A DNA stretch of 36,591 nt, from contig JAFAPB010000084.1 in assembly GCA_019247335.1 (NCBI GenBank), forward strand, positions 1 through 36,591, given 5' to 3'. Source of the DNA: Candidatus Kaiserbacteria bacterium (GTDB taxonomy: Bacteria > Patescibacteriota > Minisyncoccia > Phycocordibacterales > UBA2100). The position numbers and the translations under genes were made by a program. This document shows positions 28,685 to 36,591 of this stretch, in pieces. The stretch's first letter is position 1. Each line of letters begins with the position of its first letter. The notes beneath the pieces are model-generated. The model had not been told where the DNA came from. It ran no database searches and worked only from the letters and a program-made list of their open reading frames with translations.

Positions 28685-28743
28685 CCCGGAACTCTAGCAT
28701 GTGCTTATTGTCGTGGTACAACGGAGCGTACAGGAGGTTGGCT

Positions 28744-28797
28744 ATCAATCGCGGCGGTACCGCGATTGATCCGAGCTTACGGTGAGCCGAAGGCTCA
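28744..28797 (+). repeat. Tandem stem-loops upstream of tRNA-Ser
   Basis: ATCAATCGCGG-CGGTA-CCGCGATTGAT (11 bp) and TGAGCC-GAA-GGCTCA. Confidence 0.5.
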
Positions 28798-28815
28798 GCA
28801 CACCTCCGACCGAAG

Positions 28816-28900
28816 GGAGGGGTGGCTGAGCGGTCTAAAGCACCGGTCTTGAAAACCGGCGTGTCGAAAGGCACCGTGAGTTCGAATCTCACCCCCTCCG
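28816..28900 (+). tRNA. tRNA-Ser (TGA)
   Basis: GGAGGGG/CCCCTCC acceptor, anticodon context CTTGAAA, long variable arm, T-loop TTCGAAT. Confidence 0.94.
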
Positions 28901-28939
28901 CCCGAAGAAAGAAGTATCGGAGATATGTTGACGGTTAGA

Positions 28940-28959
28940 CCCCCGAGGCGACGCGGGGG
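28940..28959 (-). terminator. Stem-loop downstream of CD-NTase gene
   Basis: CCCCCG-AGGCGACG-CGGGGG; no T-run. Confidence 0.35.
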
Positions 28960-28976
28960 CTATCCATACTGCTTCG

Positions 28977-30302
28977 TTACTGCCCAAACACCCACTGAAG
29001 GACTACGTCTTGGCGTGAACGCCCGATGCACACTCCACTCTTGATTGCATAACATTCCACGTAGTGTCTGCCGTTATATGCGGTATTTTCCGGGTCATTC
29101 ATGGTCCCGTGATCAGTGATCTCGCCTCGTGGTTGCTTTGATTTGTTATCGTTCTTTACTTTCCATTTGTACAGGGTTGCTGCCGGAGCGTCATCGCCGC
29201 GTCGAAATTCAATCTGACGATCGACTTCTATCAGGCCGACCGCGTCTAATATTCTGCCCCTAAAGCCCCCATCTCTTGGAAGTACTCGTCCGATCACGGT
29301 AAATTCGTGCTCTACGAGCATCGGTATTCGCGAGTCAAAGAGATATTCTTCGGTGTCGCTGGCTCGCTCATGTTCTCCGGCTTCCAGCAAATCGGATATA
29401 TCCGCGCCGTTCTGGATGTTCTCAAGCTTGATGAGGAAGAAGTCCCTCATACGTTTGATTTGATCCTTCTGTGATTGAGTAAGACCTGAAACGTAGGCAT
29501 CTATTTTCTTGCTAGAGTCAGCGCGGTCAGGGATTTGGGGTTTTTCAATAAGCTCAGGGAGTCCGCAGAAGAAATTGAATACAGCGTCGAATATCTCAAG
29601 TCCAGGTTTTCTCTGGAAATCGCAGGTCACGGCTTGTTCGAGGTGGAAAGATTTTAGCGGAAAATCATCGTCTGCTTCTTTGCATGAAGCTCGCCAGCCC
29701 TTTATAAGCTTTACGGCTTTGCGAAAATCCTCACTGGCCTGATTCACCTGAGTCGCGACACTGATGTACCCGCGCGGATCCGATTTGATCCATGCCATCT
29801 GTCGGGATCCCTTCGACACTTCCGCAACTATGCGGCGTCTATCACTGTGAGATTTTGCGGCTATTTCCGGAACGACATACATATCGCCGCCGAATTCGTT
29901 TCTGCCGGATATGTATGCGGGTACGATATCAACGGAAAAAATCTCTTCGCCCGCATCGCTGAATACGATCGTTATTGAGTGTGTTTGTCGCCCTATTTCT
30001 ACATCGTATTGCGTAGGGTTGTCGTATTCAGATTCGAGGCGCGACTGGAGATCATTCAACGCGTCAGACGGGTCAAATGATGACGCATTCCATGCGCCGA
30101 GGATATAAAGCACATCAAGGTCGTGCAGGGGTGTTATCGATGTGAAGCGAGGATAGGATCCGATCTGAAGGCAGCTGGACTCGCCGAGGACATTCTGGAC
30201 GGATTCATAGACGGTGGATACGAAGTCTCGCTCCCTCGGTGTCGGAGAAAGGTGGTCCCGCACGTAAGAACGGAACAGCTCATTGATGTTACTTTTTTTC
30301 AT
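28977..30302 (-). CDS. CD-NTase (cGAS/DncV-like nucleotidyltransferase) with AGS-C-like sensor domain
   Basis: GSYPRFTSITPLHDLDVLYIL (GS...DxD), FSVDIVPAY third acidic residue, SDPRGY...FRKAVKLIKGW...LKSFHLE, C-terminal LYKWKVKNDNKSKQPRGEITDHGTMND...GRHYVECYAIKSGVCIGRSRQDVVL. Confidence 0.88.
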   Translation of the reverse strand: MKKSNINELFRSYVRDHLSPTPRERDFVSTVYESVQNVLGESSCLQIGSYPRFTSITPLHDLDVLYILGAWNASSFDPSDALNDLQSRLESEYDNPTQYDVEIGRQTHSITIVFSDAGEEIFSVDIVPAYISGRNEFGGDMYVVPEIAAKSHSDRRRIVAEVSKGSRQMAWIKSDPRGYISVATQVNQASEDFRKAVKLIKGWRASCKEADDDFPLKSFHLEQAVTCDFQRKPGLEIFDAVFNFFCGLPELIEKPQIPDRADSSKKIDAYVSGLTQSQKDQIKRMRDFFLIKLENIQNGADISDLLEAGEHERASDTEEYLFDSRIPMLVEHEFTVIGRVLPRDGGFRGRILDAVGLIEVDRQIEFRRGDDAPAATLYKWKVKNDNKSKQPRGEITDHGTMNDPENTAYNGRHYVECYAIKSGVCIGRSRQDVVLQWVFGQ

Positions 30303-30807
30303 AGCCTGTAGTGATCATGCTGACGACAATATCGTTCAGAAGGCGACCACGAAAATTATTCACTACGACATTGCGCTTTTTTTCGAGCGCATGCATGACA
30401 GGCTGCGGTATGAATCCGTGCTCTTGGGGCGCGTACACGATCAGAGCGGTGCTGTCTTCTTTGTGGGCGAGTATTTTCTCCATGTCGTCGTTATCTTTCC
30501 AGTCGGGCCAGTAGACGAGAAATAGGCTCGCTTGCTCGGCGATCCCGAGATCGCTTTCGCTCGGGATTTTCAGAATGTTAGTGCGGTTGAAGAGTTTGGA
30601 GTCATGCAGCATGTTCTCAAGTCCGATCAGCGCATCGCCTTTAGCGATGATGGCTATTTTGCGCTTCCACAGCCCATTGCCGAGCCGTATAAGGACAGGG
30701 ACGAAGCCACGGAAGCAGAGGACCGTCGCTACAATCGCCGACAGGATAACGATCACCGTGCTTATGTATCCCAGGACGTTCAGTACTTCTAAAATGGTGT
30801 CGAGCAT
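30289..30807 (-). CDS. TM-anchored protein with cytosolic alpha/beta domain; candidate CBASS effector
   Basis: LGYISTVIVILSAIVATVLCFRGF TM then KRKIAIIAKGDALIGLENML...LFLVYWPDW...TALIVYAPQEHGFIPQPVMHALEKKRNVVVNNFRGRLLNDIVVSMITTGY; start 14 nt inside the CD-NTase overlap. Confidence 0.6.
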   Translation of the reverse strand: MLDTILEVLNVLGYISTVIVILSAIVATVLCFRGFVPVLIRLGNGLWKRKIAIIAKGDALIGLENMLHDSKLFNRTNILKIPSESDLGIAEQASLFLVYWPDWKDNDDMEKILAHKEDSTALIVYAPQEHGFIPQPVMHALEKKRNVVVNNFRGRLLNDIVVSMITTGYEKK

Positions 30808-30820
30808 AATTCTTAATGGG

Positions 30821-31621
30821 CTAGTTGATATCGGCCGCCACTTTCTCGATCAGCGCACTCAGCGACGCGCGATCCAAAGTGATGATTTTTTTCGTGCCAT
30901 AAGCGAGGTTCAGCTCCTTCATCAAGGTGCGTATGCTTTCGCGGGACTGAGCGAATTTCTTATTCTTCCCGAGGAAGTCCAGCACCGAGATCAGGACGCG
31001 GTTAGAGCGGCCCATGGCGCGTTCAAGGACCTGCTGATAGATATCCTGCGTTGAAAGCAGTACGCGGGTGTAATAGTAAGGATCTTTGTTCTTCAGGTCT
31101 CCGAAAAACTCAGGGTCTGACTCCCATGGTGCGTACGTCAGATGCGCTGCCCACCAAAGACGCGCGATAGCATGGCGGCGCAGATCGCGGTCGTTACCGC
31201 TTATGAACCAGTGTTCGAGTAGATAATTTATCGCCTTTGTCTTTTCCGCCGCATCTTTAAGATCCTTGTACGTTCCGTCGAGTCCCCAGCGTACGAGCGA
31301 ATACTTCCTGAATTCGACGTGGCTGAGATAAACCCAAAGGCGCGGATCCGATGCTTGCGTCTCATCAAGATTGCGATAGTGCTCATAGAGCGTAATCGCA
31401 TTATCTATGTCAGCTGATACGGGGTCGCTCTTCGGAGCTTTTAAGACCGGCGCTTTTGTCTGGAGCACGATAGTGGAAGGCAGAAGCTCTTTTTCTTTGG
31501 CCGGAAAAGATTCTTTGAAGTAGCTCTCAAGGGAAGCACCCGAGCGCAGCTCGTTCCGCATGTGCTCGACTACGTCGCGCCTATATATCTTCTGTGCAAG
31601 AGGTTTAGTCATAGATTTCAT
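30821..31621 (-). CDS. DUF6339-like protein of defence loci
   Basis: DPRLWVYLSHVEFRKYSLVRWGLDG...RDLRRHAIARLWWAAHLTYAPWESDP motif pattern; function unknown. Confidence 0.6.
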   Translation of the reverse strand: MKSMTKPLAQKIYRRDVVEHMRNELRSGASLESYFKESFPAKEKELLPSTIVLQTKAPVLKAPKSDPVSADIDNAITLYEHYRNLDETQASDPRLWVYLSHVEFRKYSLVRWGLDGTYKDLKDAAEKTKAINYLLEHWFISGNDRDLRRHAIARLWWAAHLTYAPWESDPEFFGDLKNKDPYYYTRVLLSTQDIYQQVLERAMGRSNRVLISVLDFLGKNKKFAQSRESIRTLMKELNLAYGTKKIITLDRASLSALIEKVAADIN

Positions 31622-32447
31622 CGTCTGACATGCTGGTAAGCGTATCGATGCCCTTCAGGCTGCGGGTAGCCGGGTTATCGAGTATCCTCTGTGCCGCTTC
31701 GAATTCGTCCTTGTCCTCAAGGCTTTTTGCTTCGAGGATGGCAGCCAGTCGCCCGTACCAATTTGCTCCCTCATAGTCGGTCGAGTTTCTGATCTTGTAG
31801 ATAGCATCTACAAGCGTCGGGAAGACGATAGAGCCGTGCAGGATGCCTTGGGCAGCTTTCTGTCCGCGAACTTCAAGGTAATTTTTCCAGTCCGCCTTGG
31901 AGAGTACGACGGTTATTTTTTCCTGATCGTAATCTATCTGCATCGGCCCCTCATGGTGGAAGCCTTCGGTAATCGACATGAATGACGATACCGGCGGACG
32001 GAGAGGATCGAAGCTCTTCTCTGCGACGAAAGACGAGTATCCTCCGACCGCCAGCACGTCTCCGGCATCTACATCGAACGTCGCGCCTTCGTAATCAGCA
32101 TGCGGTTCTGTCGGCCGGTATCCTTTAATGTCTTGATCAGCGCAGATATAGAATCCGACCGTGACTCTTTCGCGCAGGGACTTTGCCGGTATGGAGAAGC
32201 GCTCGTTGGCGTTGCGCGTAGAAAAGCTCTTGCGGAAGAAAGTGCTTCGGCACTCTACTTCAGCAATGAACGACGCCCTTCCTTTTTTAATCAGCTCCTC
32301 GATGCCTGAATTTTTAAGTCCGAACGTAGGATTGAGGATGACTTCTTCTCTCCCAAGCTCGTATGGAAACTCCACTTTGAAGAATCCTCCGAGGTCGTCC
32401 CCGTTGCCGAGCACAGGATGAGGATATGATTTCGAATTAACCTTCAT
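31605..32447 (-). CDS. Hypothetical protein between GHKL ATPase and DUF6339-like protein
   Basis: 280 aa, SKSYPHPVLGNGDDLGGFFKVEFPYELG; overlaps both neighbouring genes. Confidence 0.65.
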   Translation of the reverse strand: MKVNSKSYPHPVLGNGDDLGGFFKVEFPYELGREEVILNPTFGLKNSGIEELIKKGRASFIAEVECRSTFFRKSFSTRNANERFSIPAKSLRERVTVGFYICADQDIKGYRPTEPHADYEGATFDVDAGDVLAVGGYSSFVAEKSFDPLRPPVSSFMSITEGFHHEGPMQIDYDQEKITVVLSKADWKNYLEVRGQKAAQGILHGSIVFPTLVDAIYKIRNSTDYEGANWYGRLAAILEAKSLEDKDEFEAAQRILDNPATRSLKGIDTLTSMSDDEIYD

Positions 32448-34311
32448 AGTTTTCTATTCCGAGCGTGTATTTCCGGCTAGAAGAGAGGCGCACAACGATC
32501 TTAACCGCCTTGCCGCTCTCTATGACAAGCCCCTTGATAAGAGAATCGCCGATTTCGTACCGCTCTCCTGACTTAACATCTGTCGCGGATTCAATCTCTA
32601 TCGGATAACTGCCGTCATCGCCGACCGCGACAAGCCGGATTGCTCCTTCGCAATCTTCGCGCCCGGTGATAGCGAGGAGGTATTCAAGGCCTTTCTTGCT
32701 GCTCTGCGCGAAGCTGCGAAAGCTGATCGATGAAGTGCTGATGCGTGCACCTTCTTTTCCTTCTCCTTCCGGTCCAGTAGCGCGGCCACGTGGTCCCTTA
32801 CCGGGGCCTTCGGGCGGCGTTGGTGTGACTGCGCCTTGCTGCTTGTTTGTAACGACGCTCTTTCTGATAACGGTTTCTATTTCTCCGTTCTCCGCGTCTT
32901 TGTCTGCGCCGATTTCGCGTCCCGATTCCTCGCTGCTCGAAAGCCCCGTCTCTTCATATGCTTCCCCGAGATTCGAGGGGAGATAGTCGCGGTCTTCGCT
33001 GTCTGGTAGGTAGCGGTCCAGACCCGGAATGTCCTGTGGCTCGCTCGTGAGCGAATCTCCCATGCTTTTGAGGGATTTTTTCATAAAGATATCCAGCTCT
33101 CGCAAAGCGACGGGGCCGGTCGCAGCGCGATCCTTATCCCACTTATCGTGCTGCGGGGGTTCCAAATCGCGCAGGAGTTCGTTGCCGCGATCGTTATCGC
33201 ATATCATCACGCCAGCATAGGGTTCTCTGAGCACGCGGTAGGCTTTTTCCTGCACTACCATCTTGGGCTTGCGAGCCATCATGACGCGCCCTGGGTAGCT
33301 GTCGTCTTTGCGGACCCACAAAGTGACTTTTCCTAGATGCTTCAGTTCTTCCTCGAAAGTGCTGCTTGGATTAGTAACTGCTTCGTAGAAGCATCGCGCA
33401 TCCTGCGCGTCGTATTCTTCCAAACACTTGCGCAGGGTGTCTTTTGTGATGCGGATATCCGAGCCGTCGCGCACTATCACCTCCAGCGTGCCGTGGTGTA
33501 TCGCAAGCCAGAAGTTGTCGAGCACTGACCGTATGAGTTTGTGCTCCCAATCTCCTCCGGATTTGTAGCCAAGTACGAAGATGTCGGTGCCTCGCTCTTC
33601 TCGCTTGAACATCTGTGGAACGAGGCTGCTTTTCCGCACAGCGTTGTATCCGTTGATTCCGTAGAAGCCGATTCCGCGACGCACATCGCGCTCGTCATCA
33701 TGATGGCTTACGAGGCGGGCTTTTCCTTGAAAGACCAGTTCGTTCTTGTCGTTGATGCTGGAATAGAAGACTGTGCGCAATGCAGACGCTGCAATCGGAG
33801 CACCTTTGCCGATTCCGAACGAGCCGCCCTTCACTCCTTTGGGAGAGCTGGTGCCCGCGGCTTTGACGAGGCGGTACCAATTGCCGTTAACATCGTCGTC
33901 GGATCCGAAAAGTCCCTTTGTATTGAAATCGCTTATCTTCAGTATCGGTATCGTCTTGCCTTTAAGAAGTGAGATGGCAGCTTTGAAAAATATCTCGGCT
34001 TTCTCTTGTCCTTTTACAAACGCGAGGCAGCGGCTCATGCGGCTAGCAAGCTCTTCATGGCCCGGAATAGTGGAGGTCGGTACAGAAAGCTTTTCGAACA
34101 CCACAGTTACCGGTGTGTCGTAGTCCAGGCGCGCATCGACCGCGTTCTGGATCGCCTCACGGGCTATGAAACGCTCGTGGTCTCCTTGGAAGTATTCAAG
34201 CTGCGAATCTGCGAAGCCGTCGTTCTCTCCGTGATCCGTCGTCGGAAAGTACCAGCACAGCGCGTCTGCGCTCTTTTTCTGCGATGCCGGCGCTTTCTTC
34301 TTTTTAGCCAT
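32437..34311 (-). CDS. GHKL (HATPase) ATP-binding protein of restriction/defence type
   Basis: FIAREAIQNAVDARLDYDTPVTVVFEKL, ILKISDFNTKGLFG, GVKGGSFGIGKGAPIAASALRTVFYSS. Confidence 0.82.
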   Translation of the reverse strand: MAKKKKAPASQKKSADALCWYFPTTDHGENDGFADSQLEYFQGDHERFIAREAIQNAVDARLDYDTPVTVVFEKLSVPTSTIPGHEELASRMSRCLAFVKGQEKAEIFFKAAISLLKGKTIPILKISDFNTKGLFGSDDDVNGNWYRLVKAAGTSSPKGVKGGSFGIGKGAPIAASALRTVFYSSINDKNELVFQGKARLVSHHDDERDVRRGIGFYGINGYNAVRKSSLVPQMFKREERGTDIFVLGYKSGGDWEHKLIRSVLDNFWLAIHHGTLEVIVRDGSDIRITKDTLRKCLEEYDAQDARCFYEAVTNPSSTFEEELKHLGKVTLWVRKDDSYPGRVMMARKPKMVVQEKAYRVLREPYAGVMICDNDRGNELLRDLEPPQHDKWDKDRAATGPVALRELDIFMKKSLKSMGDSLTSEPQDIPGLDRYLPDSEDRDYLPSNLGEAYEETGLSSSEESGREIGADKDAENGEIETVIRKSVVTNKQQGAVTPTPPEGPGKGPRGRATGPEGEGKEGARISTSSISFRSFAQSSKKGLEYLLAITGREDCEGAIRLVAVGDDGSYPIEIESATDVKSGERYEIGDSLIKGLVIESGKAVKIVVRLSSSRKYTLGIENYEG

Positions 34312-34312
34312 A

Positions 34313-34528
34313 TTAAAGTTTGAACTCCTTATCGCGGTTAGGGAAGCTGAACTTCGCTTTGGCCTCGCGCAGCTTCTTCTCCACTTCGGAAAAGATCTTG
34401 GCCACCTCTTCTTCGGTGTAATCATAGTGGCTGCGGTTGCCGCAGTTGCCGAGGATTTTGATCCGGCGAAGGAGTTCGTTGGTCCGCTTCGCAGCCAGCC
34501 TTTTAAAATTATCTCTTCGGTCGTCCAT
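34313..34528 (-). CDS. Small helical protein (71 aa)
   Basis: MDDRRDNFKRLAAKRTNELLRRIKILGNCGNRSHYDYTEEEVAKIFSEVEKKLREAKAKFSF; 1-nt gap to GHKL gene. Confidence 0.7.
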   Translation of the reverse strand: MDDRRDNFKRLAAKRTNELLRRIKILGNCGNRSHYDYTEEEVAKIFSEVEKKLREAKAKFSFPNRDKEFKL

Positions 34529-34537
34529 ATACGTCCG

Positions 34538-34567
34538 AATATATCATAGGCTGTTAAAATATGTCAA
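34538..34567 (-). promoter_or_regulatory. Sigma70-type promoter with extended -10
   Basis: Complement: TTGACA-18 nt-TATATT preceded by TGA; -35 at 34562-34567, -10 at 34538-34543. Confidence 0.65.
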
Positions 34568-34610
34568 ATAGAGCAATATCTACACAAGAAACGCCTATAT
34601 TGTATTGAAA

Positions 34611-35018
34611 TTAAGGCTTAAGAAAGCGCTGTATTCTCGCTAGAGTCTGCTCGGGCTTTTTTACGAGTTCGTGGCCCCATACGCGCATGACCTTCCAGCC
34701 TTTCCTGCGGAGCGCGCGGCGATTCTTTGTATCTCTCGCGATATTGGATGCGATTTTTTCCCGCCAGTACTCTCTCGGGATTCGCCGACGCCATTGATCA
34801 AACTTGTAACCGTGCCAGAAATCGCCGTCGATGAAGACGGCGATTTTCTTTGAAGGGACCGCGATATCTGGTTTGCCGGGCACCTTGGAATAATGCCGCT
34901 GGAAGTGAATCCTATTCTTTCTGAGATGGGAGAATACTTTTTTCTCTATGCCCGTATTCTTCGCGCGTATGAGCGACATGATTTCGCTCCGCTTTTCCTT
35001 CGTGAATACATCGGCCAT
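34611..35018 (-). CDS. Very-short-patch (Vsr) mismatch endonuclease family protein
   Basis: FTKEKRSEIMSLIRAKNTGIEKKVFSHLRKNRIHFQRHYSKVPGKPDIAVPSKKIAVFIDGDFWHGYKF...RRIPREYWREKIASNIARDTKNRRALRRKGWKVMRVWGHEL. Confidence 0.93.
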   Translation of the reverse strand: MADVFTKEKRSEIMSLIRAKNTGIEKKVFSHLRKNRIHFQRHYSKVPGKPDIAVPSKKIAVFIDGDFWHGYKFDQWRRRIPREYWREKIASNIARDTKNRRALRRKGWKVMRVWGHELVKKPEQTLARIQRFLKP

Positions 35019-35022
35019 GGCC

Positions 35023-35991
35023 TCATGACTCTAATGCAATTCTGATATTTTCTGCGATACGCGAAATCACCGGAACGGTCACGGAGTTGCCGACCTGTTT
35101 ATAGAGATGCGACTTCGCTTGATTGGTAGGAAATTTGAATGATTCTGGAAAACCTTGCAGTCTTGCGCACTCGCGGGGCGTCAGTCTCCTGACTCCTTTT
35201 GCATCTCGAATGAGCGGTACGTTATGGCCTCCTGCCCCCATGCTTGCAGTCAGAGTCGGGGCCATGCCGTTCTTCAGTTCTCGCACGTAGATCCTGCGGT
35301 ATTGGTAAAAGCTATCGCGATTCTTCACGGCTTTCTTGATTCGCGTGTAGATTTCGCCGAATCTTTCGTCATAGTAGTGTTCGTCATCCACGTTCTTTTC
35401 GAGTATGTGGGACATTTTCTTCGTAAGCGGAATCTTGTCTGGAAAACGGAATTTCATAAGCGTTCTCGGAGATCGGAATGCAACGATATATATTCGCTCG
35501 CGGTTCTGCGGCACGTTGCCATGCGTCATGCTGTTCATTACCTCCGCCTTCATGTGGTACCCGGCTTTCAGCAGCTCTTCCTGTATGCGCTTGAACGTCT
35601 TTTCGTCGTCGTGATTTTTCAAGTGTTTTACGTTTTCGAGGAATACCGCCCGTGGCTTTCTCTTCTTTAGGATCTCGATGACATTAAAGAGTAGGTTGCC
35701 TCTGTTAGCGTCAGCAAATCCTTTTTTATTTCCCGCGACAGAAAAGGGCTGGCAAGGAAATCCTCCGAGGAGGATGTCGAATTTTTTGGGTATCTTCTTC
35801 ATGCCTCTTTCCGCCGTTACTTTGATCAGGCTCGTGTCGTCGATTTCTCCGTAGTTCAGCCGGTATGTCGCAGCTGCGTTTTTATCAAAATCGTTAGAGT
35901 AGATGGTCTCAAAGCCAGCCGACTCGAAGCCGATGCGAATACCGCCGATGCCGGCGAAAAGATCTATTGCCTTCAGCTTTTTCTGATTCAT
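35023..35991 (-). CDS. DNA (cytosine-5) methyltransferase
   Basis: KAIDLFAGIGGIRIGFESAGF, GGFPCQPFSVAGNKKGFAD, VFLENVKHL, PQNRERIYIVAF, RRLTPRECARLQGFPESF, YKQVGNSV. Confidence 0.95.
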   Translation of the reverse strand: MNQKKLKAIDLFAGIGGIRIGFESAGFETIYSNDFDKNAAATYRLNYGEIDDTSLIKVTAERGMKKIPKKFDILLGGFPCQPFSVAGNKKGFADANRGNLLFNVIEILKKRKPRAVFLENVKHLKNHDDEKTFKRIQEELLKAGYHMKAEVMNSMTHGNVPQNRERIYIVAFRSPRTLMKFRFPDKIPLTKKMSHILEKNVDDEHYYDERFGEIYTRIKKAVKNRDSFYQYRRIYVRELKNGMAPTLTASMGAGGHNVPLIRDAKGVRRLTPRECARLQGFPESFKFPTNQAKSHLYKQVGNSVTVPVISRIAENIRIALES

Positions 35992-36001
35992 AGTCGGTAG
36001 G

Positions 36002-36591
36002 CTAATTATAGCGGGTTTCAATGTTTTCCGCTGCGGGGACATCTATGGTGACTATGCCCCTAGTAATCTTGATCTTCGACCTGAAGCATCCCATCAACTC
36101 CCGCTTCTCCTGATCCGTCCCTTCCTTTAGCGTGTATTTCGCATAGGTTCGTAGATCCACTTCTTCGTGCGCTGTTTTTGACCCAGAGAATCCGAGCACA
36201 CCGCGCTGGAACTTATTGAACCGTCGCAGCTCCTCCTCGAACTTGTGCTGCATGCCCAGATTGTTGAAGTCGATCTGATCGAGTGCCTGTATCAGCTGGT
36301 CGACCAGTTCTTCTTCGCGCAGATATGTGTTCTTGCAGTGCAGATCGCGCGCGCGACCGCACCCATAGTAGATGTACTTCGCCATGGTGCCATCCTTCAG
36401 TTGCTTGTACTTCTCTTCTGCGCTGAACATCGATCCGCATAGACCACAAGTGATGAGCTTCGTGAACGAGAACTCATGCGTCTGCCGCACGATGCTGTCG
36501 CGTTTCAACTGTTCCTGCACCTTGTCGAACAACTCCTTGGAAATCAATGGTTCGTGCTTGCCGTTGTACCAGTTGCCGCTCTTCTTCGGGA
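36002..36591 (-). CDS. Large serine recombinase, C-terminal part, truncated at right edge
   Basis: PKKSGNWYNGKHEPLISKELFDKVQEQLKRDS...FSFTKLITCGLCGSMFSAEEKYKQLKDGTMAKYIYYGCGRARDLHCKN (recombinase zinc ribbon); frame open past 36547. Confidence 0.9.
   Translation of the reverse strand, partial: PKKSGNWYNGKHEPLISKELFDKVQEQLKRDSIVRQTHEFSFTKLITCGLCGSMFSAEEKYKQLKDGTMAKYIYYGCGRARDLHCKNTYLREEELVDQLIQALDQIDFNNLGMQHKFEEELRRFNKFQRGVLGFSGSKTAHEEVDLRTYAKYTLKEGTDQEKRELMGCFRSKIKITRGIVTIDVPAAENIETRYN

What the first reader, a model, noticed from the sequence alone, without database searches (positions are those of the whole stretch)
30821..34311. GHKL ATPase plus two poorly characterised partners as the restriction core
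The GHKL protein has N-box-like AREAIQNAVDAR and G-box-like GGSFGIGKGA motifs but no nuclease domain that I can recognise. The 280-aa and 266-aa partners have no recognisable catalytic motif, so the only visible nuclease in the locus is Vsr-like. How DNA is cleaved, or whether the outcome is signalling only, is open. Comparable GHKL/MutL-like loci exist (for example mza-type), but I see no Z1 or AIPR protein here.
Basis: partly seen in the sequence, partly recalled or inferred. Interest (0 to 1): 0.6.

Follow-up and report, generated by a model that had tools for sequence, protein, structure and literature searches.

The report
Methylase-linked GHKL defence module, no nuclease
Next to a DNA-marking enzyme, this bacterial genome carries a four-gene module built around a shape-changing ATP-driven protein; it is a catalogued but untested candidate anti-virus system that appears to contain no DNA-cutting enzyme of its own, and one small gene of it had been overlooked.

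Summary
In detail: a 624-aa GHKL ATPase (A) plus 280-aa (B) and 266-aa (C) partners lie at 30821-34311. They are full-length members of PADLOC's phage-defence candidate PDC-M33 (A E=9e-140, B 1e-59, C 3e-37; C is also Pfam DUF6339). A carries the ExxxH motif (invariant in 35 of 35 homologues) by which Iyer et al. 2008 define paraMORC2, and lacks the MORC motif. AlphaFold, Foldseek, profile searches and residue conservation show no known nuclease in B or C.

'Restriction core' is not established. Vsr is dispensable: four genomes with the module have no Vsr at all. Other copies sit beside unrelated restriction enzymes (EcoRII, Sau3AI/MutH, AlwI) or inside Mza-like operons (Z1 + DUF4420). Dcm lies within 8 kb in 14 of 15 unbiased loci (about 0.16 expected).

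New here: a fourth gene S (34313-34528, 71 aa, no Pfam/PADLOC/PHROG family), whose own promoter starts a separate S-A-B-C(-CBASS) transcription unit. In 9 of 9 random proteobacterial hits S lies immediately or one gene upstream of a GHKL-type ATPase.

Most likely working (inferred, about even odds): a methylation-licensed, ATP-gated DNA clamp that immobilises unmarked DNA or hands it to any available nuclease.

The parts
35023..36042 (-). Dcm: C5-cytosine DNA methyltransferase; the conserved start is probably the ATG at 35991
   Evidence: Pfam DNA_methylase 1.4e-87, TIGR00675 297.7 bits against a cut-off of 100.65; the only Dcm in the held genome
34611..35018 (-). Vsr endonuclease, 135 aa, 4 nt after Dcm; optional companion
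   Evidence: TIGR00632 vsr 109.7 bits, above the curated 97.85; absent from the genomes G380, G383, G362 and G508 that carry the module
34538..34567 (-). sigma-70-like promoter of the S-A-B-C unit: TTGACA-N18-TATATT, 9 nt before the S start codon
   Evidence: 11 of 12 matches, the only promoter-like site found in 28700-36591; promoter score upstream of S averages 9.9 of 12 over 16 loci against 5-6 upstream of A, B, C
34313..34528 (-). S: overlooked 71-aa protein, probable dedicated partner or regulator of the GHKL ATPase
   Evidence: Conserved across phyla; no Pfam, PADLOC or PHROG family; 9 of 9 random Pseudomonadota hits lie just upstream of a GHKL-type ATPase
32437..34311 (-). A: GHKL ATPase, 624 aa, PDC-M33A, paraMORC2-like
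   Evidence: PADLOC 9.1e-140; N-, D- and G-boxes and ExxxH (E384, H388; 35/35) conserved; hhalign of its profile to a MutL/HtpG/MORC profile, probability 87.5%
31605..32447 (-). B: 280 aa, PDC-M33B; predicted beta-sandwich plus helices, conserved unstructured N-terminal SYPHPVL..DD tail
   Evidence: PADLOC 1.4e-59; AlphaFold pLDDT 75.6, pTM 0.47; only weak FN3-like fold matches
30821..31621 (-). C: 266 aa, PDC-M33C / DUF6339; predicted mostly helical, no known fold match
   Evidence: Pfam DUF6339 4.7e-42; PADLOC 2.6e-37; AlphaFold pLDDT 87.9; no PDB or viral fold match with E<1
30289..30807 (-). Downstream cargo: CBASS transmembrane effector, 172 aa, 13 nt after C
   Evidence: PADLOC CBASS effector 8.7e-60
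28977..30302 (-). Downstream cargo: CD-NTase (SMODS + AGS_C), 441 aa
   Evidence: PADLOC Cyclase 1.7e-191; Pfam AGS_C 5.6e-14, SMODS 2.5e-6

Best explanation
This is a mobile, methylase-linked defence module of the PDC-M33 / paraMORC2 type: Dcm (with optional Vsr) plus a separately transcribed unit S-A-B-C. Dcm marks host DNA. A dimerises on ATP as GHKL proteins do and, with B and C as fixed partners and S as a small ATPase partner or regulator, closes around or bridges incoming DNA that lacks the Dcm mark. The module has no nuclease of its own: the outcome is immobilisation, looping or compaction of that DNA (MORC-like), and, where a nuclease is present (a restriction enzyme, Vsr, or the DUF4420 protein of Mza-like relatives), delivery to it. 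Shown by sequence: identity, gene order, ATPase motifs, Dcm linkage, interchangeable or missing nuclease, A-B-C co-inheritance, separate promoter-like site. Inferred: sensing of missing methylation, clamp action, antiviral outcome, role of S.
For: PDC-M33A/B/C full-length matches. GHKL boxes and ExxxH invariant, MORC S5 motif absent, as in paraMORC2, whose R-M context and looping role were proposed by Iyer et al. (PMC2292703). Dcm within 8 kb in 14 of 15 unbiased loci against about 0.16 expected. A, B and C co-vary over long distances (Mantel r 0.61-0.70, p<0.001), but S, Dcm and Vsr do not, or only weakly. Vsr absent from four module-bearing genomes. Neighbouring nucleases differ: EcoRII-C, MutH/Sau3AI, AlwI, type I/MmeI, Z1+DUF4420. 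No nuclease fold or conserved catalytic set in B or C. Nuclease-free ATP-driven DNA clamping and compaction is documented for MORC2 (PMC12216690).
Against: No experiment on any member was found. A's GHKL domain is recognised by motifs and a weak profile match, not by Pfam or PDB searches, and its structure was not predicted. The B model is of modest quality (pTM 0.47). C could be an enzyme of unknown fold. Some copies sit beside type I or other methylases rather than Dcm, so the methyl mark read, if any, may vary. Mere sharing of defence islands could explain part of the varied company.
Confidence: 0.5

Rival explanations
1. Nuclease matchmaker: A-B-C works like MutL, using ATP to load or activate a partner nuclease (Vsr here, restriction enzymes elsewhere) so that unmodified DNA is cut. 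The hosts lack MutL, so A may be Vsr's partner.
For: Vsr lies in the same locus in five of the seven complete close-clade loci, window included; no MutL (PF01119) in seven module genomes although the control panel is detected; restriction enzymes of several families lie beside other copies; MutL precedents are discussed in PMC2292703.
Against: G380, G383, G362 and G508 carry the module without any Vsr. The L002 locus has only Dcm-S-A-B-C and no restriction gene seen nearby. The nuclease is not co-inherited with A.
Confidence: 0.25
2. B or C (DUF6339) is itself a nuclease or other toxic enzyme of an undescribed fold, switched on by A.
For: C is always present in complete close relatives and has a confident, unmatched fold (pLDDT 88). 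C has conserved R151, Y104, Y179, T182.
Against: Conserved polar residues of B and C do not form PD-(D/E)XK, HNH, GIY-YIG, PLD or HEPN sets. The HEPN-like RDLRRH of C is lost in several homologues. No profile hit.
Confidence: 0.15
3. Abortive signalling: A-B-C senses unmethylated or perturbed DNA and triggers the linked CBASS effector or dormancy.
For: CBASS genes follow C after 13 nt; L008 also has a CD-NTase downstream (2e-110).
Against: Most copies have no CBASS. What follows C varies (DUF6119 in L004, PLD-type protein in L061), as expected of a cargo slot.
Confidence: 0.07
4. Not defence: an accessory that maintains or repairs Dcm-modified DNA (mismatch or very-short-patch repair helper).
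For: Dcm + Vsr + GHKL is the composition of very short patch repair in E. coli; the hosts lack MutL.
Against: Mobile setting (serine recombinase at 36002, plasmids, prophages), defence neighbours, Vsr-less copies, partners unrelated to repair.
Confidence: 0.03

Closest known systems
PADLOC candidate PDC-M33 (models PDLC04582-04587)
   Same: All three proteins, same order, full-length matches
   Different: The S gene has no PADLOC model; no published functional data found
paraMORC2 GHKL family (Iyer, Abhiman, Aravind 2008, PMC2292703)
   Same: GHKL motifs, invariant ExxxH, lack of the MORC motif, cytosine methylase/Vsr neighbourhood
   Different: No superfamily II helicase here; direct alignment with the published members was not possible. 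The passages read do not describe B, C or S
Mza system (MutL-like, Z1, DUF4420, AIPR)
   Same: GHKL ATPase in a cytosine-methylase locus; two relatives (L057, L058) join an A-like GHKL and B/C-type partners with Z1, and in L057 DUF4420
   Different: Window has no Z1, DUF4420 or AIPR; no Z1 anywhere in the held genome
Eukaryotic MORC2 / C. elegans MORC-1
   Same: GHKL ATPase thought to act on DNA structure without cutting; works-like comparison only
   Different: The MORC S5 motif is absent in 35/35 homologues; no CW or coiled-coil parts seen
GHKL-Shedu (VcSduA)
   Same: GHKL ATPase in phage defence (PMC12137116)
   Different: VcSduA carries a fused DUF4263 nuclease; A has none

Membership tests
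PDC-M33 (PADLOC) | M33A, M33B and M33C proteins | tested here: met
   E = 9e-140, 1e-59, 3e-37, near full length
PDC-M33 (PADLOC) | The three genes adjacent on one strand | tested here: met
   Overlapping genes 34311-30821
PDC-M33 (PADLOC) | Anti-phage activity | not testable with these tools
   Candidate only; no paper found
paraMORC2 | GHKL motifs intact | tested here: met
   N-, D-, G-boxes conserved; profile match to GHKL set, probability 87.5%
[quoted passage not shown]
   E384 and H388 invariant in 35/35; the S5 boundaries themselves were not verified
paraMORC2 | S5-fold domain after the GHKL domain | not tested
paraMORC2 | R-M gene neighbourhood | tested here: met
   Dcm within 8 kb in 14 of 15 loci
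MORC proper | GhXhhpXXRhl motif in S5 | tested here: not met
   0 of 35
Mza | Z1-domain protein | tested here: not met
   None in the window or the held genome
Mza | AIPR and DUF4420 proteins | tested here: not met
   No Pfam match among the eight proteins of the locus
Type II restriction-modification | Cognate restriction endonuclease | tested here: not met
   No REase among the proteins of the locus; Vsr is a strand-nicking repair family and is dispensable
CBASS (neighbour) | CD-NTase plus effector | tested here: met
   1.7e-191 and 8.7e-60

The most novel reading that the evidence does not exclude
S-A-B-C is a nuclease-free 'restriction' machine: a bacterial MORC-type clamp that silences or sequesters DNA lacking the Dcm mark, with S as a general small partner of several bacterial GHKL-ATPase defence families.
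Probability: 0.3. Interest if true: 0.82.

Novelty: new member of a known kind. Interest (0 to 1): 0.5.

Why it matters
Bacterial MORC/paraMORC ATPases were predicted to work in restriction systems in 2008, but I found no mechanism established for them. This locus and its relatives give minimal versions (Dcm-S-A-B-C with no nuclease gene) in which the question can be tested directly: does a GHKL machine block unmethylated DNA without cutting it, as eukaryotic MORCs silence DNA? The S gene adds a marker that finds further GHKL systems which PADLOC misses.

Tried and rejected
HEPN RNase in C (RDLRRH resembles Rx4H): rejected, the H is lost in several homologues. Vsr as the restriction nuclease: disfavoured, absent genome-wide in four carriers. 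Pfam, NCBIfam, PHROGs and PDB sequence or profile searches for A, B and C: nothing beyond DUF6339. hhalign of A against one MORC-like protein failed, and a first script attempt found nothing; a profile against a MutL/HtpG/MORC set worked. Foldseek of B gave only weak FN3-like hits (TM 0.2-0.27) that I do not treat as homology; C gave nothing. The sister genome G257 has the same tRNA-Ser without the island, but gene order differs enough that the insertion site is not proved.

Full report
What is there. On the - strand the window holds, in order, the end of a serine recombinase, Dcm (35023-36042), Vsr (34611-35018), a 71-aa ORF that I call S (34313-34528), the GHKL protein A (32437-34311), B (31605-32447), C (30821-31621) and a two-gene CBASS (30289-30807 and 28977-30302), ending beside a tRNA-Ser at 28816-28902.

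Identity. PADLOC calls A, B and C PDC-M33A, B and C with E-values 9e-140, 1e-59 and 3e-37; Pfam knows C as DUF6339. The trio is therefore a catalogued phage-defence candidate. No held paper contains 'PDC-M33' or 'DUF6339', so I found no functional study. Pfam and PDB searches do not recognise A as GHKL, but in 35 diverse homologues the N-box, D-box and G-box residues are invariant or nearly so, E384 and H388 (ExxxH) are invariant and the MORC-specific S5 motif is absent in all. A profile of its N-terminal part matches a MutL/HtpG/MORC profile with 87.5% probability. Iyer et al. 2008 define paraMORC2 by a conserved ExxxH in the S5 domain and place paraMORCs in R-M operons with cytosine methylases and Vsr (PMC2292703). 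I file A as paraMORC2-like, with the caveat that the S5 fold was not tested and the published members could not be aligned.

No nuclease found. AlphaFold predicts B as a beta-sandwich plus helices (pLDDT 75.6, pTM 0.47) and C as mostly helical (pLDDT 87.9, pTM 0.85). Foldseek gives B only weak FN3-like matches and C no match better than E=1.6 in the PDB or 2.9 among viral proteins. Conserved polar residues of B (D17, D18, C66, R72, Y110, S155, Q253) and C (D68, N71, Y104, R108, R151, T159, Y179, T182) form no known nuclease set. The most conserved part of B, its N-terminal SYPHPVL..DD, is predicted to be disordered (pLDDT<50), which suggests a docking peptide (inference).

Context across genomes. 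The order S-A-B-C recurs in Patescibacteria, Omnitrophota, Alphaproteobacteria, Deinococcus, Arthrobacter, Priestia, Planococcus and prophage contigs; haloarchaeal and lactic-acid-bacterial plasmids carry A and C, with or without a recognisable B and S. Two genome searches of 380 and 399 genomes drawn evenly from two phyla gave 15 loci that could be judged; 14 have a cytosine methylase within 8 kb, against about 0.16 expected from the number of such genes per genome. Eight of these 15 matches cover only part of the A model, so they are relatives rather than strict M33A. Vsr is not essential: G380, G383, G362 and G508 have the module and no Vsr anywhere; in L002 the unit is just Dcm-S-A-B-C. 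Plasmid copies lie beside EcoRII-C, MutH/Sau3AI, AlwI or type I/MmeI genes. In L057 and L058 a divergent A with B/C-type partners sits with Z1 (MzaC 5e-91 and 7e-86), Dcm and Vsr; in L057 also with a DUF4420 protein and a recognisable DUF6339. These are intermediates between PDC-M33 and Mza. Distance matrices of A, B and C agree across remote loci (Mantel r 0.61-0.70, p<0.001), whereas A-Dcm is weak (0.36, p=0.03) and A-S and A-Vsr are not significant. A-B-C thus behaves as one machine with exchangeable methylases and nucleases.

The S gene. S has no Pfam, PADLOC or PHROG family. Searching 399 Pseudomonadota genomes with its profile gave nine hits. All nine lie immediately upstream, or one gene upstream (G440), of a GHKL-type protein: five M33A-like, two HATPase_c proteins without a nearby Dcm hit, and two 825-852-aa proteins with an N-box (L107) or D-box (both), beside an N6/N4 methylase. 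The GHKL assignment of the last two rests on motifs only. S is also preceded by the promoter: TTGACA-N18-TATATT in the window, 11 of 12 matches, the only promoter-like site found. Over 16 loci the best promoter score upstream of S averages 9.9 of 12 against 5-6 upstream of A, B and C; it beats shuffles of the same DNA (p<0.05) in 11 of 16. Three relatives show a terminator-like hairpin between Vsr and this promoter (by eye, L004, L005, L007). Methylase and effector units are thus probably transcribed separately, as expected if the methylase must act first. S may be a regulator or an ATPase partner; its constant company is the ATPase, which favours the latter (inference).

How it most likely works. 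Established: ATPase motifs, fixed A-B-C set (usually with S), Dcm linkage, optional and interchangeable nucleases. Inferred: A closes on DNA in an ATP-dependent way, B and C give specificity or bridging, the Dcm mark licenses host DNA, and the result is immobilisation, looping or compaction, or delivery to a nuclease when one is encoded. MORC2 gives a precedent for ATP-driven DNA compaction without a nuclease (PMC12216690); Iyer et al. proposed looping for paraMORCs. The MutL-like matchmaker is the main rival: seven carriers lack MutL, but Vsr-less carriers count against Vsr as the obligatory partner. I give the clamp reading, in the broad form that includes hand-over to a nuclease, 0.5, and the strictly nuclease-free form 0.3.

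Verdict. Real, conserved and probably defensive, but a member of a catalogued candidate kind. The new points are the S component and its general link to GHKL ATPases, the separate promoter, the demonstration that Vsr is dispensable, and the Mza bridge.

Noticed in passing
28977-30807: Two-gene CBASS (TM effector + SMODS/AGS_C CD-NTase) starts 13 nt after C, so it may be co-transcribed with S-A-B-C; L008 also has a CD-NTase downstream of C, suggesting a variable cargo slot.
   Followed up: partly
36002-36589: C-terminal part of a serine recombinase (zinc ribbon, Recombinase) cut by the contig end directly upstream of Dcm; L006 has a complete 504-aa serine recombinase in the same position, so the module probably travels on such an element.
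   Followed up: partly
28816-28902: tRNA-Ser(TGA) borders the island; the same-genus genome G257 has this tRNA without the island, but flanking gene order differs.
   Followed up: partly
L106:6347-8417 and L105:5796-7934: S beside a ~610-aa HATPase_c protein with no methylase detected nearby: a possible separate, uncatalogued GHKL system (no PADLOC match).
   Followed up: partly
L107:3459-7515 and L108:5476-9443: S followed by an 825-852-aa GHKL-like protein and an N6/N4 DNA methylase: another methylase-linked system without a PADLOC model for the large protein.
   Followed up: partly
L008:11493-11786: A second, divergent S-like ORF overlapping the end of C, upstream of a CD-NTase.
   Followed up: no
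L057:4279-11536 and L058:5042-12221: Hybrid of Mza (Z1; DUF4420 shown in L057) and PDC-M33 (A-like GHKL with B/C-type partners) with Dcm and Vsr.
   Followed up: partly
G000 (window genome) and six other carrier genomes: No MutL (PF01119) found, so Vsr in these hosts has no MutL partner.
   Followed up: yes
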